Source: Cordylochernes scorpioides (taxonomy: Eukaryota > Arthropoda > Arachnida > Pseudoscorpiones > Chernetidae). From it: 64,000 nt of DNA. Below are positions 10,881 through 64,000 of this stretch, in pieces. The stretch is from the NCBI GenBank assembly GCA_030710605.1, contig CP092865.1:136231500-136295499 (forward strand), given 5' to 3'. The notes beneath the pieces were generated by a model that was not told where the DNA came from, did no database searches, and worked only from the letters and a program-made list of their open reading frames with translations. Every line of letters begins with the position of its first letter. Position 1 is the first letter of the stretch. A program made the translations under genes and the position numbers.

Positions 10881-13800
10881 CTTGAACTGGAATGGCTAAT
10901 AATGCCTTACCATGGACTGACTCGACTAAAGAACACCCCTACCATGGACTGACTCGGCTGAAGAAAGCCCCTAACATGGACTGACTCGGCTGAAGAAAGC
11001 CCCTAACATGGACTGACTCGGCTAAAGAAAGCCCCTGCCATGGACTGACTCGGCTAAAGAAAGCCCTTACCTTGGACTGACTCGGCAAAAGAAAGCCCCT
11101 ACCATGGACTGACTCGGCTAAAGAAAGCCCCTACCATGGACCGACTCGGCTAAAGAAAGCCCTTACCTTGGACTGACTCGGCTAAAGAACTCCCTTACCT
11201 TGGACTGACTCGCCTAAAGAAAGCCCCCACCATGGACTGACTCGGCTGAAGAAAGCCCTTACCATGGACTGACTCGCCTAAAGAAAGCCCCCACCATGGA
11301 CTGACTCGGCTGAAGAAAGCCCTTACCATGGACTGCCCGCTGTACAAATTCAATGGAGCAATCTCCAATCTCCATTCTGTCACCCCGGAAGCCCTGAACT
11401 GGCTGAAGGCCTTGCCTCTCAGACTTTAATGACCGATATGTCCTCATTTCTTTTTTCTAGATTCAATTCATTTTGTCTCCTCTCTAATTGTAAATACGCT
11501 GCTGTATCACCTCATGAGCATAAATAAATAAAACCATGGACTGACTCGGATAAAGAAAGCCCCTACCATGGACTGACTCGGCTAAAGAAAACCCCTACCA
11601 TGGACTGACTTGGCTAAAGAAAGCCCCTACCATGGACTGACTCGGCTAAAGAAAGCCCCTACCATGGAATGACTCGGCTAAAGAAAGCCCCTACCATGGA
11701 CTGACTCGGCTAAAGAAAGCCCCTACCATGGACTGACTCGGCTAAAGAAAGCCCCTACCATGGACTGACTTGGCTAAAGAAAGCCCCTACCATGGAGTGA
11801 CTCGGCTAAAGAAAGCCCCTACCATGGACTGACTCGGCTAAAGAAAGCCCTTACAATGGACTGACTCGGCTAAAGAAAGCCCCTACCATGGACTGACTTG
11901 GCTAAAGAAAGCCCCTACCATGGACTGACTCGGCTAAATAAAACCCCTACCATGGACTGACTCGGCTAAAGAAAGCCCCTACCATGGACTGACTCGGCTA
12001 AAGAAAGCCCTTACAATGGACTGACTCGGCTGAAGAAAGCCCCTACCATGGACTGACTTGGCTGAAGAAAGCCCCTACCATGGACTGACTCGGCTAAAGA
12101 AAGCCCTTACCATGGACTGACTCGGCTAAAGAGAGCCCTTACCATGGACTGACTCGGCTAAAGAAAGCCCCTACCATGGACTGACTCGGCTAAAGAAAGC
12201 CCTTACAATGGACTGACTCGGCTAAAGAAAGCCCCTACCATGGACTGACTTGGCTAAAGAAAGCCCCTACCATGGACTGACTCGGCTAAAGAAAGCCCTT
12301 ACAATGGACTGACTCGCTAAAGAAAGCCCTTACCATGGACTGACTCGGCTAAAGAGAGCCCTTACCATGGACTGACTCGGCTAAAGAAAGCCCCTACCAT
12401 GGACTGACTCGGCTAAAGAAAGCCCCTACCATGGACTGACTCGGCTAAAGAAAGCCCCTACTATGAACTGACTTGGCTAAAGAAAGCCCCTACCATCGAC
12501 TGACTTGGCTAAAGAGAGCCCTTACCATGGACTGACTTGGCTAAAGAAAGCCCCTACCATCGATTGACTCGGCTAAAGAGAGCCCTTACCATGGACTGAC
12601 TTGGCTAAAGAAAGCACCTACCATGGACTGACTCGGCTAAAGAAAGTCCCTACTATGAACTGACTCGGCTAAAGAAAGCCCTTACCATGGACTGACTCGG
12701 CTAAAGAGAGCCCTTACCATGGACTGACTCGGCTAAAGAAAGCACCTACCATCGACTGACTTGGCTAAAGAAAGCCCCTACCATGGACTGAATCGACTAA
12801 AGAAAGCCCCTACCATGGACTGACTCGGCTAAAGAAAGCCCCTACCATGGACTGACTCGGCTAAAGAAAGCCCCTACCATGGACCGACTTGGCTAAAGAA
12901 AGCCCCTACCATGGACTGATTCGACTAAAGAAAGCCCCTACCATGGACTGACTTGGCTAAAGAAAGCCTCTACCATGGACCGACTCGGCTAAAGAAAGCC
13001 CCTACCATGGACCGACTTGGCTAAAGAAAGCCCCTTCCATGGACTGATTCGACTAAAGAAAGCCCCTACCATGGACTGACTTGGCTAAAGAAAGCCTCTA
13101 CCATGGACCGACTCGGCTAAAGAAAGCCCCTACCATGGACTGACTCGGCTAAAGAAAGCCCTTACAATGGACTGACTCACTAAAGAAAGCCCTTACCATG
13201 GACTGACTCGGCTAAAGAGAGCCCTTACCATGGACTGACTCGGCTAAAGAGAGCCCTTACCATGGACTGACTCGGCTAAAGAGAGCCCTTACCATGGACT
13301 GACTTGGCTAAAGAAAGCCCCTACTATGAACTGACTCGGCTAAAGAAAGCCCTTACCATGGACTGACTCGGCTAAAGAGAGCCCTTACCATGGACTGACT
13401 CGGCTAAAGAAAGCCCCTACCATGGACCGACTTGGCTAAAGAAAGCCCCTACCATGGACTGACTCGACTAAAGAAAGCCCCTACCATGGACTGACTTGGC
13501 TAAAGAAAGCCTCTACCATGGACCGACTCGGCTAAAGAAAGCCCCTACCATGGACTGACTCGGCTAAAGAAAGCCCCTACCATGGACTGACTCGGCTAAA
13601 GAAAGCCCCTACCATGGACTGACTCGGCTAAAGAAAGCCCCTACTATGAATTGACTCGGCTAAAGAAAGCCCTTACCATGGACTGACTCGGCTAAAGAGA
13701 GCCTTTACCATGGACTGACTTGGCTAAAGAAAGCCCCTACCATCGACTGACTTGGCTAAAGAGAGCCCTTACCATGGACTGACTTGGCTAAAGAAAGCCC

Positions 13801-15055
13801 CTACCATCGACTGACTCGGCTAAAGAGAGCCCTTACCTTGGACTGACTTGGCTAAAGAAAGCCCCTACCATCGACTGACTCGGCTAAAGAGAGCCCTTAC
13901 CATGGACTGACTTGGCTAAAGAAAGCACCTACCATGGACTGACTCGGCTAAAGAAAGCCCCTACTATGAACTGACTCGGCTAAAGAAAGCCCTTACCATG
14001 GACTGACTCGGCTTAAGAGAGCCCTTACCATGGACTGACTCGGCTAAAGAAAGGACCTACCATCGACTGACTTGGCTAAAGAAAGCCCCTACCATGGACT
14101 GAATCGACTAAAGAAAGCCCCTACCATGGACTGACTCGGCTAAAGAAAGCCCCTACCATGGACTGACTCGGCTAAAGAAAGCCCCTACCATGGACCAACT
14201 TGGCTAAAGAAAGCCCCTACCATGGACTGACTCGACTAAAGAAAGCCCCTACCATGGACTGACTTGACTAAAGAAAGCCTCTACCATGGACCGACTCGGC
14301 TAAAGAAAGCCCCTACCATGGACTGACTCGGCTAAAGAAAGCCCCTACCATGGACTGACTCGGCTAAAGAAAGCCCCTACCATGGACTGACTCGGCTAAA
14401 GAAAGCCCCTACCATGGACTGACTCGGCTAAAGAAAGCCCCTACCATGTACCGACTCGGCTAAAGAAAGCCCCTACCATGGACTGACTCGGCTAAAGAAA
14501 GCCCCTACCATGGACCGACTCGGCTAAAGAAAGCCCCTACCATGGACCGACTTGGCTAAAGAAAGCCCTTACCATGGACTGACTCGACTAAAGAAAGCCC
14601 CTACCATGGACTGACTTGGCTAAAGAAAGCCCCTACCATGGACCGACTCGGCTAAAGAAAGCCCCTACCATGGACTGACTCGGCTAAAGAAAGCCCCTAC
14701 CATGGACTGACTCAGCTAAAGAAAGCCCCTACCATGGACTGACTTGGCTAAAGAAAGCCCCTACCATGGACTGACTCGGCTAAAGAAAGCCCCTACAATG
14801 GACCGACTCGGCTAAAGAAAGCCCCTACCATGGACCTACTCAGCTAAAGAAAGCCCCTACCATGGACTGACTCGGCTAAAGAAAGCCCCTACCATGGACT
14901 GACTCGGCTAAAGAAAATCCCCTACCATGGACTGATTCGGCTAAAGAAAGCCCTTACCATGGACTGACTCGGCTAAAGAAAGCCCTTACAATGAACTGGC
15001 CTGGCTAAAGAACGCATTACCATGGACTAACCTGACTAAAGAACCCTCTACCTTG
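10880..15055. repeat. 32-bp satellite array, about 125 units
   Basis: Tandem 32-bp units built on CCATGGACTGACTCGG followed by CTAAAGAAAGCCCCTA. Recurrent variants (ACTTGG for ACTCGG, GAGAGC for GAAAGC, CATCGACTG for CATGGACTG) reappear in blocks of several units, suggesting higher-order amplification. The edges decay gradually, at about 10880 and 15055. One foreign segment interrupts the array at 11335-11532. Confidence 0.97.
11335..11532 (+). mobile_element. Short retroposon (LINE-like 3' end) inside the satellite
   Basis: About 198 bp of non-satellite sequence ending in an AAAT-type tail (ATAAATAAATAAA). Satellite sequence resumes with ACCATGGACTG, which also occurs immediately left of the insert, as a target duplication would. 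Because the site lies in a repeat, that duplication is not conclusive. Confidence 0.5.
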
Positions 15056-16279
15056 GTCTGACCACTTGCGACGACTCCATAGAAGAGAGTGAATCCCACG
15101 CCACGCCTCTTCCAGTTGAAAAAGATGAGGAGAAATGACATCAGAGAGACATGTCCCTCATCACTAGCCTTCTCGAACTTAACCATCTGTTCTTAAAATG
15201 TCGATTTAACAATAAATATTTTGTGGTCTTTATATCTTGTAACTATCTTATTAAAGAACATAACATTTGTTGGTGCTAGATAGCAATATTATAGCGGTCT
15301 GGTTTATTGAACTGTCGAGAGAAGGGGTTTACTACATTGAGATAAATTTGAAACTATTATTCATAATTGAAACTAAGACAAAATATTGAAAATATAACAA
15401 ATCAACGGCAGCTTGAAAAGTTTTAGCTGCGGTAAAAATGAATATTTTTCAATCAAAATAAATAAATTGAAGAAAAAGAGTGCGTCACTAATTATTTAAT
15501 TATAAAAAAAATATTCTAGTTAAATATCTTTTTTGATTAAATATTATTTAAAATATATAAATAAGGTTTAAGTATAAATATTTTAAAAGTCGGTCTCTTA
15601 AAAAAACAAGGTATTTTTACATCTATTCAAGCTCTGAAGCAAAAAAAAAAAAGATGAAACAAATCGAAAAATCAACCTAAGAGTCTTTTTTGGAAATGTA
15701 GGAGTCTGTAAACCGGTAACAAGATTACCTATTCATGATAAAATTGTGAAAAAGTATTATATTTTTCCAATGAATATAATAGCATAAACAGAAAAATAGA
15801 TTTACCATCACAATACCGATATCTCAGAAGAAATCAATAGATCAATTTTATAAGTTCTGGATGCCCTAAAAATAAAATAGATATATTCCATAAAATATTT
15901 AAAATAGTTAAATTACAAACCAATTCAAAATTTTCAGTTATGAATATATATATATGTATTAGATAATAAAAGGCATATTTAGGATTCAATAAAATATTTA
16001 TTTTGCCAATATTTCGGCTGGCTGAACGCCAACCTTTATCGAGGCATTGCATTTTTGTATACACAATATATATGTATGTCCACGCGGCGCGCGTTTGTTT
16101 TTTGTAAATATTTCTGAAGGGATCAAGTCGATATTATTGTAAGGCCGTTGAAGAGTAATTAAAGCTTGAAAGCTAACGTTTTTTTAAATAAAAAATTTAC
16201 CCATTGTGAGAATATATTTGTAATTTTTAATAAAGATTACATATCTTATAAATGTCTGACACCAATACTTCTATTGATA
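15056..16279. other. Unassigned AT-rich DNA
   Basis: No gene is recognised. The minus strand of about 15995-16045 contains a stem-loop followed by CCGAAATATTGG, resembling the degenerate ends of Penelope-like or hammerhead-bearing repeats, but the conserved ribozyme core is not intact. Confidence 0.3.
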
Positions 16280-39917: not shown

Positions 39918-41280
39918 TGCAAAGTAAACCCTCACCATTTCACACAGGGTCAAGTCACGCGACATGCGAATTGCCAATGTAAACCCTCGCCATTTCACAC
40001 AGGGTCAAGTCACGCGACATTCCACTTGCCAACGTAAACCCTCGCCAGTTCACACAGGGTCAAGTCACGCGACATTCCACTTGTCAATGTAAACCCTCGC
40101 CATTTCACACAGGGTCAAGTCACGCGACACGCCAATGTAAACCCTCGCCATTACACACAGGGTCAAGTCACGCGACACGCCAATGTAAACCCTCGCCATT
40201 TCACACAGGGTCAAGTCACGCGATACGCCAATGTAAACCCTCGCCATTTCACACAGGGTCAAGTCACGCGACACGCCAATGTAAACCCTCGCCATTTCAC
40301 ACAGGGTCAAGTCACGCGATACGCCAATGTAAACCCTCGCTATTTCACACAGGGTCAAGTCACGCGATACGCCAATGTAAACCCTCGCCAGTTCACACAG
40401 GGTCAAGTCACGCGACATTCCACTTGCCAACGTAAACCCTCGCCATTTCACACAGGGTCAAGTCACGCGACTTGCCAATGTAAATCCTCGCCATTTCACA
40501 CAGGGTCAAGTCACGCGACACGCCAATGTAAACCCTCACCATTTCACACAGGGTCAAGTCACGCGACACGCCAATGTAAACCCTCGCCAGTTCACACAGG
40601 GTCAAGTCACGCGACTTGCCTATGTAAACCCTCGCCATTTCACACAGGGTCAAGTCACGCGATACGCCAATGTAAACCCTCGCCATTTCACACAGGGTCA
40701 AGTCACGCGACACCCCAAGGTAAACCCTCGCCATTTCACACAGGGCCATGTCACGCGACATGCCGATGTAAACCCTCACCATTTCACACAGGGTCACGCG
40801 ACTTGCCAATGTAAACCCTCGCCATTTCACACAGGGTCACGCGACTTGCCAATGTAAACCCTCGCCATTTCACACAGGGTCACGCGACTTGCCAATGTAA
40901 ACCCTCGCCATTTCACACAGGGCCATGTCACGCGATACGCCAATGTAAACCCTCGCCATTTCACACAGGGTCACGCGACTTGCCAATGTAAACCCTCGCC
41001 ATTTCACACAGGGTCACGCGACTTGCCAATGTAAACGCTCACCATTTCACACAGGGTCAGGTCACGCGACTTACCAATGTAAACCCTCGCCATTTCACAC
41101 AGGGTCACGCGACTTGCCAATGTAAACCCTCGCCATTTCACACAGGGTCACGCGACATGCCAATGTAAACCCTCACCATTTCACACAGGGTCACGCGACA
41201 AGCCAATGTAAACCCTCGCCATATCACACAGGGTCAAGTTACGCGACATGCCAATGTAAACCCTCGCCATTTCCCACCAA
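39918..41280. repeat. 48-bp satellite with a 43-bp variant
   Basis: Units of 48 bp (GTAAACCCTCGCCATTTCAC then ACAGGGTCAAGTCACGCGAC) dominate up to about 40790. After that most units are 43 bp, lacking AAGTC within GGTCAAGTCACGCG. About 29 units. Because 48 is divisible by three, the minus strand is open over long stretches with a 16-residue repeat (MARVYIGVSRDLTLCE). I regard this as incidental. The array starts at the gap, so its true length is unknown. Confidence 0.96.
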
Positions 41281-42519: not shown

Positions 42520-42870
42520 AAAACTTAAGGAAGTGGAAAGTCTTTGATGTCTCGCAAATCATATGTTTTTTTAAGGAGACAGAGACTATTCACACTTGGT
42601 TATCTCGTGTGTCTTCAATAAAGGTCACTATAATATCTTTCAGAGTTATTGTCTCAATCCCGATATACATGGTAAAAGGTATAACTTCCTTAAGTTTTGT
42701 CGATGAGTGTATCTTTCAGAGTTATTGTCTGAATCCGATATACATGGTAAAAGGTCCAACTTCTTTAAGGTTTGTCCATGAGTGTATCTTTCAGAGTTAT
42801 TATCTGAATCCCTAATACATGGTAAAAGGTACAATTTCCTTAAGTTTTGTCCATGATGATATATCTTATA
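42520..42870 (-). repeat. 126-bp satellite family, antisense cluster with shortened units
   Basis: Inverted relative to the array at 63.1-64 kb. It contains TCTTTCAGAGTTATTGTCTG and ATACATGGTAAAAGGT repeated, with one long unit followed by units of about 75 bp that end in TTTGTCCATGAGTG. Confidence 0.85.
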
Positions 42871-45189: not shown

Positions 45190-45335
45190 AAAAGCATTGG
45201 GCGCCTCTCCCGTCAGAATAAACGTTAAAACCTGATGCCATTTATTGATACAGGTTTTGACGTTTATTTTGACGGGTGAGGCGCCCTATGCTTCTATGGA
45301 TCAATTTCTTCCCGGAAAATTTTCCATCTATTATA
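45190..45335. repeat. Hairpin made of the retrozyme-like repeat edge
   Basis: The edge block of the 320-bp unit is present twice head to head: GCGCCTCTCCCGTC (45201) and its complement GACGGGTGAGGCGCC (45271). The right flank CTTCCCGGAAAATTTTCC matches the adjoining part of the family. Confidence 0.85.
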
Positions 45336-45518
45336 TGATATGTTAAACAATTTTAAAATATTCCTTTAATACGTTTCCATATACGCTTAATTTATGAACA
45401 AAATGTATTATATTTTATTCTCTCTAAAATATTACATCCAATCGTTGAATTGAAACAAAAGATTAAATTCTGGAAATTGTGAAGAATATCATAGAGTGAA
45501 GCAAATGTGTAGGTAGAA

Positions 45519-48500
45519 ATGGAACGCTTCACGATTTTGTGTGTCATCCTTGCGCAGGGGCCATGCTAAACTTCTCTGTATCGTTCCTATTGTAGTAGTT
45601 ATACCGCCGAACACAGGGGCCATACCTTAATCTTCTCTGTATCGTTCTTATTTTAGTAGTTGTACCGCCGAACACAGGGGCCATACCTTAATCTTCTCTG
45701 TATCGTTCTTATTTTAGTAGTTGTACCGCCGAACACAGGGGCCATACCTTAATCTTCTCTGTATCGTTCTTATTTTAGTAGTTGTACCGCCGAACACAGG
45801 GGCCATACCTTAATCTTCTCTGTATCGTTCTTATTTTAGTAGTTGTACCGTCGAACACAGGGGCCATACCTTAATCTTCTCTGTATCGTTCTTATTGTAG
45901 TAGTTGTACCGTCGAACACAGGGGCCATGCTAATCTTCTTTGTATCGTTCTTATTGTAGTAGTTGTACCGTCGAACACAGGGGCCATACCTTAATCTTCT
46001 CTGTATCGTTCTTATTGTAGTAGTTATACCGTCGAACACAGGGGCCATGCTAATCTTCTTTGTATCGTTCTTATTGTAGTAGTTGTACCGTCGAACACAG
46101 GGGCCATGCTAATCTTCTTTGTATCGTGCCTATTGTAGTAGTTGTACCGCCGAACACAGGAGCCATGCTAATCTTCTCTGTATCGTTCCTATTGTAGTAG
46201 TTGTACCGTCGAACACAGGGGCCATGCTAATATTCTCTGTATCGTTCCTATTGTAGTAGTTGTACCGCCGAAAACAGGGACCATGCTAATCTTCTCTGTA
46301 TCGTTCCTATTGTAGTTGTTGTACCGCCGAACACAGGGGCCATGCTAATTTTCTCTGTATCGTTCCTATTGTAGTAGTTGTACCGCCGAACTGGTATCAC
46401 AGGGGCCATGCTAATCTTCTCTGTATTGTTCCTATTGTAGTAGTTGTACCGTCGAACACAGGGGCCATGCTAATCTTCTTTGTATCGTGCCTATTGTAGT
46501 AGTTGTACCGCCGAACACAGGGGCCATGCTAATCTTCTCTGTATCGTTCCTATTGTAGTAGTTGTACCGTCGAACACAGGGGCCATGCTAATATTCTCTG
46601 TATCGTTCCTATTGTAGTAGTTGTACCGCCGAAAACAGGGACCATGCTAATCTTCTCTGTATCGTTCCTATTGTAGTAGTTGTACCGCCGAACACAGGGG
46701 CCATGCTAATTTTCTCTGTATCGTTCCTATTGTAGTAGTTGTACCGCCGAACTGGTATCACAGGGGCCATGCTAATCTTCTCTGTATCGTTCCTATTGTA
46801 GTAGTTGTACCGCCGAACTGGTATCACAGGGGCCATGCTAATCTTCTCTGTATCGTTCCTATTGTAGTAGTTGTACCACCGGACACAGGGGCCATGCTAA
46901 TCTTCTCTGTATCCTTCCTATTGTAGTAGTTGTAACGCCGAACACAGGGACCATGCTAAACTTCTCTGTATCGTTCCTATTGTAGTAGTTGTACCGCCGA
47001 ACTGGTATCACAGGGACCATGCTAAACTTCTCTGTATCGTTCCTATTGTAGTAGTTGTACCGCCGAACTGGTATCACAGGGGCCATGCTAATCTTCTCTG
47101 TATCGTTCCTATTGTAGTAGTTGTACCACCGGACACGGGGGCCATGCTAATCTTCTCTGTATCCTTCCTATTGTAGTAGTTGTACCGCCGAACACAGGGA
47201 CCATGCTAAACTTCTCTGTATCGTTCCTATTGTAGTAGTTGTACCGCCGAACTGGTATCACAGGGGCCATGCTAATCTTTTCTGTATCATTCCTATTGTA
47301 GTAGTTGTACCGCCGAACTGGTATCACAGGGGCCATACCTTAATCTTCTCTGTATCTTTCTTATTTTAGTATATGTACCGCCGAAAACAGGGGCCATGCT
47401 AATCTTCTCTGTATCATTCCTATTGTAGTAGTTGTACCGCCGAACACAGGGGCCATGTTAATCTTCTCTGCATCGTTCCTATTGTAGTAGTTGTACCGCC
47501 GAGAACAGGGTCCATGCTAATATTCTCTGTATCATTCCTATTGTAGTAGTTGTACCGCCGAACACAGGGGCCATGCTAAACCTCTCTGTATCGTTCCTAT
47601 TGTAGTAGTTATACCGCCGAACACAGGGGCCATGCTAATATTCTCTGTATCGTTCCTATTGTAGTATTTGTACCGCTGAACACCGGGGCCATGTTAATCT
47701 CTGTATCGTTCCTATTGTAGTAGCTGTACCGCCGAACACAGGGGCCATGCTAATCTTCTCTGTATCGTTCCTATTGTAGTAGTTGTACTGCCGAACACAG
47801 GGGCCATGCTAATCTTCTCTGTATCGTTCCTATTGTAGTAGTTGTACCAACGAACACAGGGGTCATGCTAGTCTTCTCTTTATTGTTCCTATTATAGTAG
47901 TTGTACCGCCGAACACAGGGACCATGCTAATCTTCTCTGTATCGTTCCTATTGTAGTAGTTGTACCGCCGAACACAGGGACCATGCTAATCTTCTCTGTA
48001 TCGTTCCTATTGTAGTAGTTGTACCACCGAACACAGGAGCCATGCTAATCTTCTCTGTATCCTTCCTATTGTAGTAGTTGTATCGCCGAACACAGGGACC
48101 ATGCTAATCTTCTCTGTATTGTTCCTATTGTAGTAGTTGTACTGCCGAACACAGGGGCCATGCTAAACCTCTCTGTATCGTTCCTATTGTAGTAGTTATA
48201 CCGCCGAACACAGGAGCCATGCTAATCTTCTCTGTATTCTTCCTATTGTAGTAGTTGTACCGCCGAACACAGGGACCATGTTAATCTCTGTATCGTTCCT
48301 ATTGTAGTAGTTGTACTGCCGAACACAGGGGCCATGCTAATCTTCTCTGTATCGTTCCTATTGTAGTAGTTGTACCGCCGAACACAGGGACCATGCTAAT
48401 CTTCTCTGTATCGTTCCTATTGTAGTAGTTGTACCACCGAACACAGGGGCCATGCTAATCTTCTCTGTATCCTTCCTATTGTAGTAGTTGTACCGCCGAA

Positions 48501-50272
48501 CACAGGGATCATGCTAATCTTCTCTGTATTGTTCCTATTGTAGTAGTTGTACCGCCGAACACAGGGACCATGCTAATCTTCTCTGTATCGTTCCTATTGT
48601 AGTAGTTGTACCACCGAACACAGGAGCCATGCTAATCTTCTCTGTATCCTTCCTATTGTAGTAGTTGTACCGCCGAACACAGGGACCATGCTAATCTTCT
48701 CTGTATTGTTCCTATTGTAGTAGTTGTACTGCCGAACACAGGGGCTATGCTAATCTTCTCTGTATCGTTCCTATTGTAGTAGTTGTACCACCGAACACAG
48801 GGGCCATGCTAATCTTCTCTGTATCCTTCCTATTGTAGTAGTTGTACCGCCGAACACAGGGACCATGCTAAACTTCTCTGTATTGTTCCTATTGTAGTAG
48901 TTGTACTGCCGAACACAGGGGCCATGCTAATCTTCTCTGTATCTTTCCTATTGTAGTAGTTATACCGCCGAACACAGGGGCCATGTTAATCTCTGTATCG
49001 TTCCTATTGTAGTAGTTGTACCACCGAACACAGGGGTCATGCTAGTCTTCTCTGTATCCTTCCTATTGTAGTAGTTGTACCGCCGAACACAGGGACCATG
49101 CTAAACTTCTCTGTATTGTTCCTATTGTAGTAGTTGTACTGCCGAACACAGGGGCCATGCTAATCTTCTCTGTATCTTTCCTATTGTAGTAGTTATACCG
49201 CCGAACACAGGGGCCATGTTAATCTCTGTATCGTTCCTATTGTCGTAGTTGTACCGCCGAACACAGGGGACCATGCTAATCATCTCTGTATCGTTCCTAT
49301 TGTAGTAGTTGTACTGCCGAACACAGGGGCCATGCTAATCTTCTCTGTATCGTTCCTATTGTAGTAATTGTACCGCCGAACACAGGGGCCATGTTAATCT
49401 CTGTATCGTTCCTATTGTAGTAGTTGTACTGCCGAACACAGGGGCCATGCTAATCTTCTCTGTATCGTTCCTATTGTAGTAGTTGTACCGCCGAACACAG
49501 GGGCCATGCTAATCTTCTCTGTATCGTTCCTATTGTAGTAGTTGTATCACCGAACACAGGGGCCATGCTAGTCTTCTCTGTATTGTTCCTATTATAGTAG
49601 TTGTACCGCCGAACACAGGGGCCATGCTAATCTTCTCTGTATCCTTCCTATTGTAGTAGTTGTACTGCCGAACACAGGGGCCATGCTAATCTTCTCTGAA
49701 TCCTTCCTATTGTAGTAGTTGTACCCCCGTACACAGAGTCCATGCTAATCATCTTTGTATCCTTCCTATTGTATAGTTGTACCTCCGAACACAGGGTCAT
49801 TGTAATCATCTCTGTATCGTTCCTATTGTAGTAGTTGTACCGCCGAACACAGGGCCATGCTAATCTTCTCTGTATTGTTCCTATTGTAGTAGTTGTACCG
49901 TCGAACACAGGGGCCGTGCTATTCTTCTCTGTATCGTTCCTATTGTCGTAGTTGTACCGCCGAACACAGGGGCCATGCTAATCTTCTCTGTATCGTTCCT
50001 ATTGTAGTAGTTGTACCGCCGAACACAGGGGACATGTTAATCTTCTCTGTATCGTTCCTATTGTAGTAGTTGTACCGCTGAACACAGGAGCCATGCTAAT
50101 ATTTCTGTATCGTTCCTATTGTAGTAGTTGTACCGTCGAACACATGGGCCATGCTAATCTTCTCTGTATCGTTCCTATTGTAGTAGTTGTACCGCCGAAC
50201 ACAGGGCCATGCTAATCTTCTTTTTATCGTTCCAATTTTAGTATATGTACCGCCGAACAAGCGTGTACACAT
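45519..50272 (-). repeat. U6 snRNA-derived satellite array 1, about 80 units
   Basis: Read on the minus strand, each unit is a segment of spliceosomal U6: TTCGGCGGTACA, then GGAACGATACAGAGAAGATT and AGCATGGCCCCTG, followed immediately by the next TTCGGC. Units are 59 bp, or 66 bp when a GATACCA spacer is present. The last unit (45519-45600) continues into the true U6 3' half (GCGCAAGGATGACA, TCGTGAAGCGTTCC). The first unit (about 50225-50272) keeps the unaltered ACATATACTAAAATTGGAAC. Each unit has the ACAGAGA box and the AGC triad but not the internal stem-loop. No T-run terminator is visible. Confidence 0.95.
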
Positions 50273-50466
50273 ATTTAGATAGATATATTCTATAGAGATA
50301 ATAAAATATTTAGAGGAATTTAAATTTCTGAAAATATCCAGCAGTTTAAATTCTTAAAAATTTAATTGCATACAAAATTATATATACTTGCAAACTCTAC
50401 ACTCGCCTGTTCAATGATACGCTAACCATGACGTATGCACGAAGGAACCTGTGGCCATTGGACATA

Positions 50467-56901: not shown

Positions 56902-57990
56902 AGGTATGATTAAAAATAGGAAAGAGACATAGAAGATTAGCATGGTCCCTGTGATACCAGTTCAGCGGTACAATTACTACAATAAGAACGATACAGAGAA
57001 GATTAGCATGGTCCCTGGGATACCAGTTCAGCGGTACAACTACTACAATAAGAACGATACAGAGAAGATTAGCATGGTCCCTGTGATACCAGTTCAGCGG
57101 TACAACTACTACAAAAAGAACGATACAGAGAAGATTAGCATGGTCCCTGTGATACTAGTTCAGTGGTACAACTACTACAATAAGAACGATACAGAGAAGA
57201 TTAGCATGGTCCCTGTGATACCAGTTCAGCGGTACAACTACTACAATAGGAACGATACAGAGAAGATTAGCATGGTCCCTGTGATACTAGTTCAGTGGTA
57301 CAACTACTACAATAAGAACGATACAGAGAAGATTAGCATGGTCCCTGTGATACCAGTTCGACGGTATAACTACTACAATAAGAACGATACAGAGAAGATT
57401 AGCATGGTCCCTGTGATACCAGTTCAGCGGTACAACTACTACAATTAGAACGATACAGAGAAGATTAGCATTGTCCCTGTGATACCAGTTCAGCGGTACA
57501 ACTACTACAATTAGAACGATACAGAGAAGATTAGCATTGTCCCTGTGATACCAGTTCAGCGGTACAACTATTAAAATAAGAACGATACAGAGAAGATTAG
57601 CATGGCCCCTGTGATACCAGTTCAGCGGTACAACTACTACAATAGGAACGATACAGAGAAGATGAGCATGGCCCCTGTGTTCGGCGGTACAACTACTACA
57701 ATAGGAACGATACAGAGAAGATGAGCATGGCCCCTGTGTTCGACGGTACAACTACTACAATAGGAACGATACAGAGAAGATTAGCATGGCCCCTGTGTTC
57801 GGCGATACAACTACTAAAATAAGAACGACACAGAGATGATTAGCATGGCCCCTGTGGTACCAGTTCAGCGGTACAACTACTACAATAGGAACGATACAGA
57901 GAAGATTAGCATGGCCCCTGTGTTCGGCGGTACATATACTAAAATTGTAACGATACAGAGAAGTTTAGCATGGCCCCTGTGTTCGGCGGT

Positions 57991-58030
<40 letters not shown>

Positions 58031-58619
58031 GGCCCCTGTGTTCGGCGGTACATATACTAAAATTGTAACGATACAGAGAAGATTAGCATGGCCCCTGTGT
58101 TCGGCGGTACAACTACTACAATAGGAACCATACAGAGAAGATTAGCATCGCCCCTGTGTTCTGCGGTACAACTACTACAATAGGAACCATACAGAGAAGA
58201 TTAGCATGGCCCCTGTGTTCGGCGGTACAGCTACTACAATAGGAACAATACAGAGAAGATTAGCATGGCCCCCGTGTCCGGCGGTACATATACTACAATA
58301 GGAACGATACAGAGAAGATCGCATGGCCCCTGTGTTCGGCGGTACAACTACTACAATAGGAAGGATACAGAGAAGATTAGCATGGGCTCTGTGATACCAG
58401 ATCGGCGGTACAACTACTACAATAGGAAGGATACAGATAGGATTAGAATGGTCCCTGTGATACCAGTTCGGCGGTACAGCTACTACAATAGGAAGGATAC
58501 AGAGAAGATTAGCATGGCCCCTGTGATACCAGTTCGGCGGTACATATATTACAATAGGAACGATACAGAGAAGATTAGCATGGCCCCTGCGCAAGGATGA
58601 CACGTAAAATCGTGAAACG
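56902..58619 (+). repeat. U6 snRNA-derived satellite array 2, about 28 units
   Basis: Plus-strand counterpart of the array at 45.5-50.3 kb. Early units (to about 57600) are mostly 66 bp with the GATACCAGTTCAGCGG junction; later units are 59 bp. Several near 57930-58070 keep the ancestral U6 text CATATACTAAAATTGGAACG. The final unit continues into CCCCTGCGCAAGGATGACAC and CGTGAAACGT, the U6 3' half, and stops without a T-run. The left edge is a decayed unit. Confidence 0.95.
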
Positions 58620-58978
58620 TCAGTAATCAGACTGAGATAGATTTAAAACATTTTATTGAACAGCTTCAAACATACGAGTATACATGCTCAACATATATAA
58701 GATAATAAAAACAAAGTTATAAAATATATACAATCAAAAATTTTAAATGGTTAGAAATTTTTACAAAATTCCTTTTTAGGTCTTCTGGATTCGGTCGAAA
58801 GATTCTCTTGCAGGTAGGCTCACCTCTTCTTTCTCCGAGTCGGCATATCCTCCAGAGTGATTATACCGCCACGGCTCGGTTGTAGGTGAGGCATACAGCT
58901 TCAATAAGCCCTTGGGAAAGAAAGGTAGTCTGCAGGATCAGGTCAGAACAACAGGAATACTGGAACAAACAGGCCGAT

Positions 58979-63094: not shown

Positions 63095-64000
63095 ATGGAG
63101 AAAACTTAAGGAAGTTGTACATATTAACATGTATATCGGATGTCAGACAATAACTCTGAAAGATATTACAGTGATCTTTATGGAAGACATGCGAGATAAC
63201 CAAGTGTTAACAGCTTCTGTCTCCTTAAAACTTAAGGAAGTTGTACCTTTTAGCATGTATATCGGGATTCAGACAACAACTCTGAAAGATATCACAGTGA
63301 CCTTCATTGAAGACATAAGAGATAACCAAATGTGAACAGCCTCTGTCTTCTTAAAACTTAAGGAAGTTGTACATATTAACATGTATATCAGAATTCAGAC
63401 AATAACTCTGAAAGATATTACAATGACCTTTATTGAAGTACACGAGATACCAAAGTGTGAACAGCCTCTGTCTCCTTCAAACTTAAGGAAGTTGTACCTT
63501 TTATCATGTATATTGGGATTCAGACAATAACTCTGAAATATATTACAGTGACCTTTATTGAAGACACATGAAATACCCAAGTGTGAACAGCCTCTGTCTC
63601 CTTAAAACTTGAGGAAGTTGTACCTTTTAGCATGTATATTGGGATTCAGACAATAACTCTGAAAGATATTACAGTGACCTTTATTGAAGACACACGACAT
63701 ACCCAAGTGTGAACAGCCTCTGTCTCCTTAAAACTCAAAGAAGTTGTACCTTTTAGCATGTATATTGGGATTCAGATAATAACTCTGAAAGACATTAGTG
63801 ACCTTTATTGAAGACATACGAGATAACCAAGTGTGAACAGCTTCTGTCTCCTTAAAACTTAAGGAAGTTTTACCTTTTGGCATGTATATCGGGATTCAGA
63901 CAATAACTCTGAAAGATATTACAGTGACCTTTATTGAAGATACACTAGATAACCAAGTGTGAACAGCCTCTATCTCCTTAAAACTTAAGGAAGTTTTACC
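63095..64000 (+). repeat. 126-bp satellite array, runs off the window
   Basis: About seven units with a period of 125-126 bp (GGAAGTTGTA at 63110, 63236, 63362 and 63487). Each contains AGCATGTATATTGGGATTCA, AATAACTCTGAAAGATATTA and GAACAGCCTCTGTCTCCTTA. The first unit starts after CACTCATGGAG. Confidence 0.95.

What the first reader, a model, noticed from the sequence alone, without database searches (positions are those of the whole stretch)
45519..50272. Satellite made from an internal segment of U6 snRNA
Each of about 80 units carries the U6 5' region, ACAGAGA box and AGC triad, then jumps from CCCCTG back to TTCGGC, skipping the internal stem-loop and 3' end. Tandem gene copies of U6 are known, but a satellite built from a sub-gene U6 segment is unusual. 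If transcribed, it could make an RNA with many U4- or splice-site-pairing motifs and no catalytic stem-loop.
Basis: partly seen in the sequence, partly recalled or inferred. Interest (0 to 1): 0.9.

Follow-up and report, generated by a model that had tools for sequence, protein, structure and literature searches.

The report
U6-derived jumping minisatellite of a pseudoscorpion
In a pseudoscorpion genome, part of a small RNA that cells need for splicing has been repeated in tandem inside copies of its own gene, and these repeat-bearing copies appear to have been copied through RNA into several hundred places, much like the repeat-carrying mobile elements known from apes.

Summary
Confirmed, and larger than described. 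Window 45519-50268 (- strand) holds 79 tandem units of U6 nt 11-68, lying inside a U6 copy: a U6 5' end precedes the array and the U6 3' part follows it. A second array (56915-58620, +) has the same repeat and tail. The host is almost certainly the pseudoscorpion Cordylochernes scorpioides.

The commoner unit elsewhere is 66 bp: U6 nt 11-68 plus an 8-nt non-U6 linker TGATACCA. That junction occurs exactly 5230 times (control 0), extrapolating roughly to 500 dispersed arrays. The window's 59-bp unit is a rarer derivative. Flanking direct repeats of 8 bp or more occur in 10 of 18 tail-bearing arrays against 7 of 306 mismatched pairs, though not around window array 1. Some copies are mutation-free. 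Duplicated loci differ in unit number: 79 versus 18.

Best reading: a U6-derived retroposon family with an internal variable-number repeat (architecture like SVA/LAVA), spread by LINE-type retroposition, growing and shrinking in place. No promoter-bearing source gene was found. Transcription and any splicing role are untested.

The parts
50259..50268 (-). U6 5' head (nt 1-10, GTACACGCTT) of array 1
   Evidence: Sequence; 10 of 10 identical to the head of promoter-bearing host U6 genes of the GTACACGC class (L011, L013)
50201..50258 (-). Unit 0, the 5'-most unit, U6-type at the four diagnostic sites
   Evidence: unit 0: TA/A/T as in host U6
45555..50258 (-). 79 tandem units of U6 nt 11-68: 72 of 56-61 bp, 7 of 66-68 bp with linker TGATACCA
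45519..45554 (-). U6 3' tail (CGCAAGGATGACAC...GCGTTCCAT) closing array 1
   Evidence: Rfam U6 hit 45513-45620, 87.6 bits, model 1-105; tail length 36
45503..45518 (-). 3' flank, possible decayed target-site duplication; not significant
   Evidence: 11 of 16 positions match 50269-50284 by eye, but the tests are negative (p about 0.38; longest exact match 4)
50269..50284 (-). 5' flank, possible decayed target-site duplication; not significant
   Evidence: As above
56915..58589 (+). Array 2: 27 units (first one partial), 66- and 59-bp forms mixed; no U6 head in the window copy
   Evidence: its segmental duplicate (L106) has a head
58590..58620 (+). U6 3' tail of array 2
   Evidence: Rfam U6 hit 58526-58631, 93.3 bits; the duplicate L106 shows direct repeat TCCAGTAA at both ends, by eye

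Best explanation
The arrays are members of a dispersed, U6-derived retroposon family. A U6 sequence of the GTACACGC class acquired an internal duplication of nt 11-68 with an 8-nt filler (TGATACCA), perhaps by a reverse-transcriptase template jump. RNA running from the U6 5' end to its 3' part, with several internal repeats, was reverse transcribed and inserted at new sites by target-primed (LINE-type) machinery, with 3' ends chosen by short pairing between the U6 tail and the target. This gave the plan: target duplication - U6 head - n x 66 bp - U6 tail - target duplication. Inserted copies mostly lack a promoter, and their repeats then expand, contract and mutate in place; the window's 79-unit, mostly 59-bp array is an old, overgrown, linker-deleted member. 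Shown: U6 origin, head/tail plan in many copies, common linker, dispersal, flanking duplications in many copies, unit-number change in duplicated loci. Inferred: an RNA intermediate that already carried several units, LINE machinery, Pol III transcription, the template jump. Unknown: the source locus. No host function is indicated.
For: An 8-nt linker absent from U6: 5230 exact 32-mer junctions, 0 in the reversed control. Arrays found without using the linker carry it too: window arrays 1 and 2, L009 (from the U6 family search), and L120/L121 (from a promoter search; near-duplicates). Twelve consecutive array sites on C1 lie in different flanks, except J and K which are a duplication; 11 of 12 match the U6 head at 6 or more of 10 positions (D and L only 6; I 5), and 5 of the 11 whose 3' ends were examined end in the U6 tail. 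Exact direct repeats of 8 bp or more flank 10 of 18 tail-bearing arrays (8 of 16 without the two (CT)n insertions) versus 7 of 306 cross pairs, permutation p about 2e-4; by the same measure plain U6 retrocopies score 13 of 34 (cross pairs 55 of 1122) and TATA-bearing U6 loci 0 of 10. Mutation-free arrays L092 and L093 (5 units each) with exact head and tail. Unit variants shared between arrays at different sites: C40G in 20 of 31, an AC insertion in 6 of 31 (J and K counted apart). Unit number differs between duplicated loci: 79 vs 18; J vs K 17 vs 13 (alignments spanning array and flank about 95% identical). The duplicate of window array 2 has a head and, by eye, a flanking TCCAGTAA repeat. 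L010 and L026 are head-to-tail concatemers of nearly full-length U6 joined at oligo-T tails within one CT-rich insertion site, as expected if a LINE-type reverse transcriptase jumps between U6 RNAs. LINE-like endonuclease and RT ORFs lie in the window.
Against: 8 of 18 tail-bearing arrays, including array 1 of the window, show no exact flanking repeat of 8 bp or more. 6 of the 11 C1 arrays with an examined 3' end (A, D, E, H, J, K) lack a U6 tail. Of the 15 U6-type sites, two (L089, L100) lack a head. No promoter-bearing source gene was found: eight further promoter-bearing U6 loci fetched have the spacing of single-copy U6, and only 1 of 21 array-head rows (19 independent loci; L093) has a TATA-like box at the right distance. 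Four of the 26 promoter places were not looked at, and the search for the second promoter class did not complete. No RNA data.
Confidence: 0.75

Rival explanations
1. Interlocus gene conversion: ordinary U6 retropseudogenes, already flanked by target duplications, were converted by array-bearing U6 copies, so the arrays spread as DNA between resident U6 copies rather than through RNA.
For: Would also give heads, tails and target duplications; plain U6 retrocopies are common (34 examined); unit variants are shared between loci.
Against: Mutation-free copies with perfect head, units and tail (L092, L093) and exact 12-16 bp direct repeats (L094, L095, L096, L099) look like fresh insertions of the whole element; conversion needs no such coincidence of ages.
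Confidence: 0.12
2. Independent local satellite growth: each U6 pseudogene duplicated its own internal segment and grew by replication slippage and unequal crossing over.
For: Unit number clearly changes in place (79 vs 18; 17 vs 13); shared variant order suggests local higher-order duplication in array 1.
Against: The same 8-nt non-U6 linker in 5230 exact junctions at sites on many contigs. All 31 arrays tabulated have it in at least one unit, but 28 of these were found by patterns containing it; the fair cases are the two window arrays, L009, L120 and L121, all with the linker. U6 tandems without it exist (L010, L026) but are of nearly full-length U6.
Confidence: 0.06
3. A transcribed, functional satellite: array RNA with many U4- or 5'-splice-site-pairing motifs acts on splicing or chromatin.
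For: Inner units keep the ACAGAGA-AGC stretch largely unchanged.
Against: That stretch is shared by descent and units diverge; no TATA-like box at 20 of 21 array-head rows examined; arrays vary greatly in unit number and ends; no RNA data.
Confidence: 0.05
4. Assembly artefact: collapsed or mis-joined U6 repeats.
For: Reads could not be inspected; tandem arrays are error-prone.
Against: Junctions lie on at least 12 contigs, in many different flanks, many with flanking duplications; unit-level divergence and ordered variants are not what a mis-join gives. Exact lengths may still be wrong.
Confidence: 0.02

Closest known systems
U6 snRNA processed pseudogenes, including 3'-truncated tailless ones (Doucet et al. 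2015, PMC4476161; abstract and passages seen)
   Same: U6 5' end intact, variable 3' truncation with junction homology, target-site duplications, no poly(A) needed, LINE-type template choice proposed
   Different: Those are described as single U6 copies; the word 'tandem' has 0 occurrences in the main text held. Here the retroposed unit carries an internal tandem repeat with a fixed non-U6 linker
VNTR composite retrotransposons SVA/LAVA/PVA/FVA (Lupan et al. 2015, PMC4432496; abstract seen)
   Same: Non-autonomous retroposon with a central variable-number tandem repeat between other 5' and 3' domains, VNTR remodelled at DNA level, mobilised by a LINE in trans
   Different: SVA-type elements are composites of Alu and other parts and described as hominoid-specific; here head, repeat and tail are all U6, no poly(A) tail was seen by eye in the 18 tails, and the host is an arachnid
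SINEs derived from small RNA genes (tRNA, 7SL, 5S; snRNA-derived ones recalled, not looked up)
   Same: Dispersed short retroposons from a Pol III RNA
   Different: U6 promoters are external (recalled; TATATAA lies 23 nt before the U6 start in L003, L011, L013), so copies do not carry their promoter
Satellite/minisatellite DNA arising inside transposable elements (recalled)
   Same: Tandem arrays seeded by a mobile element and expanded in place
   Different: The seed here is a spliceosomal RNA segment

Membership tests
U6 retropseudogene | U6 5' end at the element boundary | tested here: met
   Window array 1 head 10 of 10; 11 of 12 C1 arrays match at 6 or more of 10 positions; window array 2, L089 and L100 lack it
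U6 retropseudogene | Flanking target-site duplication | tested here: met
   For the family: 10 of 18. For window array 1 itself: not detected. For window array 2: seen by eye in its duplicate
U6 retropseudogene | No promoter upstream | tested here: met
   TATA-like box in 1 of 21 array-head rows
VNTR retroposon (SVA-like) | Central tandem repeat of variable number between fixed ends | tested here: met
   Unit numbers 2 to 79 with the same plan; several C1 arrays lack the tail
VNTR retroposon (SVA-like) | Composite of parts from different elements, with poly(A) tail | tested here: not met
   Head, unit and tail all U6; no poly(A) after the 18 tails, by eye
VNTR retroposon (SVA-like) | Mobilised by LINE machinery | tested here: inconclusive
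   Target duplications and microhomology, U6 concatemers joined at oligo-T, LINE-like ORFs in the window; no assay
SINE | Internal Pol III promoter carried by each copy | not tested
   No A/B box scan was made; U6 genes use an external promoter (recalled)
Classical satellite DNA | Long head-to-tail arrays | tested here: met
   79 units in window array 1
Classical satellite DNA | Large blocks at centromeres, telomeres or heterochromatin | tested here: inconclusive
   Arrays sampled are short and dispersed; chromosomal mapping not possible, only the first 100 places are listed

The most novel reading that the evidence does not exclude
A still-active retroposon family has evolved out of a spliceosomal RNA: U6 duplicated its own catalytic-core segment into a VNTR, the repeat-bearing RNA became a better or tolerated template for LINE machinery, and it has seeded several hundred loci of an arachnid genome, independently arriving at the SVA/LAVA architecture known from apes. 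The multi-ACAGAGA RNA would be expressed and would meet the spliceosome.
Probability: 0.45. Interest if true: 0.8.

Novelty: new variant of a known kind. Interest (0 to 1): 0.62.

Why it matters
VNTR composite retrotransposons are described as specific to hominoid primates (abstract of PMC4432496). A family with the same architecture made wholly from one essential snRNA, in an arachnid, would show that the architecture can arise again from a single RNA gene, and gives a clean system, with known parent sequence and a fixed linker as a tag, to ask how internal tandem repeats arise and why retroposition tolerates them. It also shows a route from an essential RNA gene to minisatellite DNA.

Tried and rejected
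1. Target duplication of window array 1: a 16-nt candidate agrees at 11 positions by eye but fails both tests; not claimed.

2. Genome search with the 66-bp unit as DNA: 0 candidates; the tool skips very common words, so this shows nothing about rarity. The exact-pattern search was used instead.

3. Promoter-bearing source gene: promoter search (26 places; two were the known L011 and L013), 20 fetched, four not looked at. Eight of the 20 are U6 with single-copy spacing; L116 is a broken U6 copy; L118, L120 and L121 have U6 or an array on the opposite strand. No source. The parallel search with the other U6 promoter did not complete. L093 has TATATAA 23 nt before the head, the same gap as in L003, L011 and L013, but no recognisable upstream element by eye, and lies in a (CT)n stretch: it may be coincidence and cannot be excluded as a source.

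4. U4 as a control family: not answered, not repeated.

5. Literature: the lists of searches of an open-access library show no paper that by its title or abstract start reports a U6-derived satellite or a U6 VNTR retroposon. Several lists were cut (39: 10 of 837; 73: 10 of 17; 75: 10 of 12; 76: 10 of 26; 97: 12 of 88); subscription papers are not covered. PMC7754599 and PMC4935994 were seen as passages only and speak of snRNA genes; PMC2770079 passages gave nothing on this.

6. Copy-number estimates (about 500 arrays, about 15,000 units, about 1 Mb) are extrapolations from 12 arrays on C1 and are rough; arrays with no exact junction are missed.

7. The script printed its results, then stopped with an error when saving; its printed results are used.

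8. Rows dropped before counts: one search left out L001 and L015; one search ran L002-L048 without L007, L009 and L015, and L049 (which repeats L003-L005) was left out; the TATA group of 10 holds L002 and L048, which are one locus, and L032, probably TATA-like by chance. could use only arrays with a recognisable tail (18 of the 29 given to it).
Full report
1. Observation. The window holds two tandem arrays of a U6 segment. Array 1: 45519-50268, minus strand, 79 units. Array 2: 56915-58620, plus strand, 27 units, the first partial. Rfam U6 matches in the window at gathering score, best 1e-22. A unit is U6 nt 11-68 (GTTCGGCGG...GCATGGCCCCTG) plus either T (59 bp) or TGATACCA (66 bp). In array 1, 71 units have the short linker, 7 the long one and the last runs into the tail; six units are 61 bp, with an AG insertion, and one 68 bp. 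Mean distance of array 1 units to host U6 is 10.5%, to the unit consensus 4.2%. Four substitutions set most inner units apart from U6 (T24A, A25C, A31C, T35A); unit 0 of array 1 has the U6 state at all four.

2. What the finding missed. Array 1 starts with a U6 5' end (GTACACGCTTG) and ends in the U6 3' part (CGCAAGGATGACAC...GCGTTCCAT), so the array sits inside one U6 copy. The terminal copy keeps the internal stem-loop region that the inner units lack.

3. Host. A copia-type ORF of the window matches proteins of Cordylochernes scorpioides, the best 98% identical over 56% of the query, and contig lengths behind those hits (for example 103967631, 90421875, 180100396, 223678689, 173459892) equal those of contigs C8, C15, C24, C1 and C3 of the window's genome. 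The host is therefore this pseudoscorpion; the assembly is 2.62 Gb.

4. Host U6 genes. One search scored 48 U6 hits over the cut-off. Eight distinct loci have a TATA box about 30 nt upstream (L002/L048, L003, L004, L005, L006, L011, L013, L047), in two classes, GTACTCGC and GTACACGC. Most others lack it, and many of these are flanked by direct repeats: 13 of 34 plain copies have an exact repeat of 8 bp or more (cross pairs 55 of 1122), against 0 of 10 in the TATA group (the group counts one locus twice and holds one probable chance case, L032). This genome thus carries many U6 retropseudogenes. Two loci are head-to-tail concatemers of nearly full-length U6 joined at oligo-T tails: L010 (three copies) and L026 (two), each in a CT-rich site. 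They look like products of a reverse transcriptase that jumps from one U6 RNA to the next.

5. The family. The 66-bp junction (32 nt) occurs exactly 2411 + 2819 = 5230 times, control 0. The 59-bp junction (25 nt) occurs 154 times; the first 100 places, the only ones listed, include the window's arrays and their duplicates and other sites on C1, C2, C3 and C6. Of 31 arrays tabulated only the window's two contain 59-bp units, but 28 of the 31 had been found by patterns holding the long linker. In the first 65 Mb of C1 the junction falls into 12 array sites. 11 of 12 match the U6 head at 6 or more of 10 positions (D and L only 6; I 5). Of the 11 whose 3' ends were examined, B, F, G, I and L end in the U6 tail; A, D, E, H, J and K do not; C was not reached. 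The 12 arrays hold 118 exact junctions (93 in the DNA counted; 25 more of array E listed), which extrapolates to about 530 arrays; 263 units per 93 exact junctions extrapolates to about 15,000 units or 1 Mb. Both figures are rough. Junctions were seen on 12 of 24 contigs, from lists that are mostly cut short.

6. Two unit types. An exact U6-type unit with linker (56 nt) occurs 29 times at 17 sites; all 17 were looked at (15, L104, L009 before). Several arrays are wholly U6-type at the diagnostic sites (L090, L092, L094, L095, L096, L099, L100); others start with one U6-type unit and continue mostly with the derived ACCA type (L093, L098; also L and window array 1) or alternate (L103). L092 (five U6-type units) and L093 (one U6-type plus four ACCA units) show no mutation in head, units or tail, so the family includes young copies.

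7. Retroposition. Of 18 arrays with a recognisable tail, 10 have an exact direct repeat of 8 bp or more at the two ends: B 12, F 8, G 9, L090 8, L092 15, L093 16, L094 15, L095 12, L096 15, L099 16; L092 and L093 lie in (CT)n and count for little. The other 8, window array 1 among them, have 4-6. Cross pairs: 7 of 306; permutation of pairings p about 2e-4, the floor of 5000 shuffles. The U6 tail ends at different points (13 to 37 nt of tail), in several cases within a few bases shared with the target. This is the picture described for 3'-truncated snRNA pseudogenes in mammals, where pairing of the RNA with nicked target DNA is proposed (PMC4476161, passages).

8. One origin, then local change. 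The linker is not U6 sequence. All 31 arrays have it in at least one unit, but for 28 of them this follows from how they were found; the window arrays, L009, L120 and L121 were found otherwise and have it too. 5230 identical junctions in dispersed arrays point to one founding duplication. Unit variants recur in arrays at different sites: C40G in 20 of 31, an AC insertion in 6, linker TGATACTT in 7 (J and K, one duplication, are counted apart). This suggests that several units travelled together. Unit number also changes in place: the window pair is duplicated about 76 kb away at 88% identity including flanks, and array 1 has 79 units where its duplicate has 18 with the same 3' junction; J and K on C1 have 17 and 13, with alignments of 95-96% identity spanning array and flank. 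The duplicate of array 2 has a head and, by eye, the repeat TCCAGTAA at both ends, which ties a window array to retroposition although array 1 shows no such repeat.

9. Source. None found. Of 21 array-head rows (19 independent loci) only L093 has a TATA-like box, 23 nt before the head as in real genes, without a recognisable upstream element by eye. A promoter search found 26 places; of 20 fetched, eight are further promoter-bearing U6 genes with single-copy spacing, their interiors withheld. The search for the other promoter class did not complete. The source may be lost, unassembled, or one of the copies.

10. Function. No host function is indicated. Inner units mostly keep ACAGAGA-AGC but this is inherited.

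11. Novelty. U6 retropseudogenes and VNTR retroposons are both known; their union in one snRNA-only element did not appear in the search lists named under Tried and rejected. I class it as a new variant of a known kind.

Noticed in passing
L010 and L026: Head-to-tail concatemers of nearly full-length U6 (three and two copies) joined as ...CCATATTTTTT-GTACACGC..., inserted at CT-rich sites: looks like reverse-transcriptase template jumping between U6 RNAs, a different kind of U6 tandem from the 66-bp family.
   Followed up: partly
window 10908-15062: A long 32-bp minisatellite (ACCATGGACTGACTCGGCTAAAGAAAGCCCCT), rows of 13.4 and 110.4 copies at 90-91% matches.
   Followed up: no
window 42634-42856 and 63101-64000; L009 8378-9110; 3' flank of array E (L073): Another dispersed minisatellite (75-126 bp units...AACTTAAGGAAGTTGTACC...) in opposite orientations in the window, again near the L009 array, and directly at the 3' end of U6 array E: a second dispersed minisatellite family of this genome.
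   Followed up: no
window 39920-41277: 48-bp tandem array, 25.5 copies at 40085-41277.
   Followed up: no
L126 (C1:114373840-114374590): A U6-like PSE/TATA promoter directly followed by repeated CCGACCCTAGTAGTT...GTAGAAGGCGGAA segments; no Rfam match up to E 0.01. Possibly a second small-RNA locus with internal repeats.
   Followed up: partly
L096 3' flank and L102 5' flank: Two arrays inserted almost at the same spot of the same repeated sequence (CAACAACCTGTATACCATG), hinting at target preference.
   Followed up: no
L050 (C1:1004277): Array A is followed directly by an inverted U6-array segment, by eye with its own head.
   Followed up: no
window 45200-45290: A near-perfect inverted repeat (GGGCGCCTC...GAGGCGCCC), MITE-like, just beside array 1, by eye.
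   Followed up: no
C1, places listed: Eight of the twelve array sites in the first 65 Mb lie within the first 7.1 Mb, one at 22.5 Mb and three at 63.6-65.2 Mb: distribution looks uneven.
   Followed up: no
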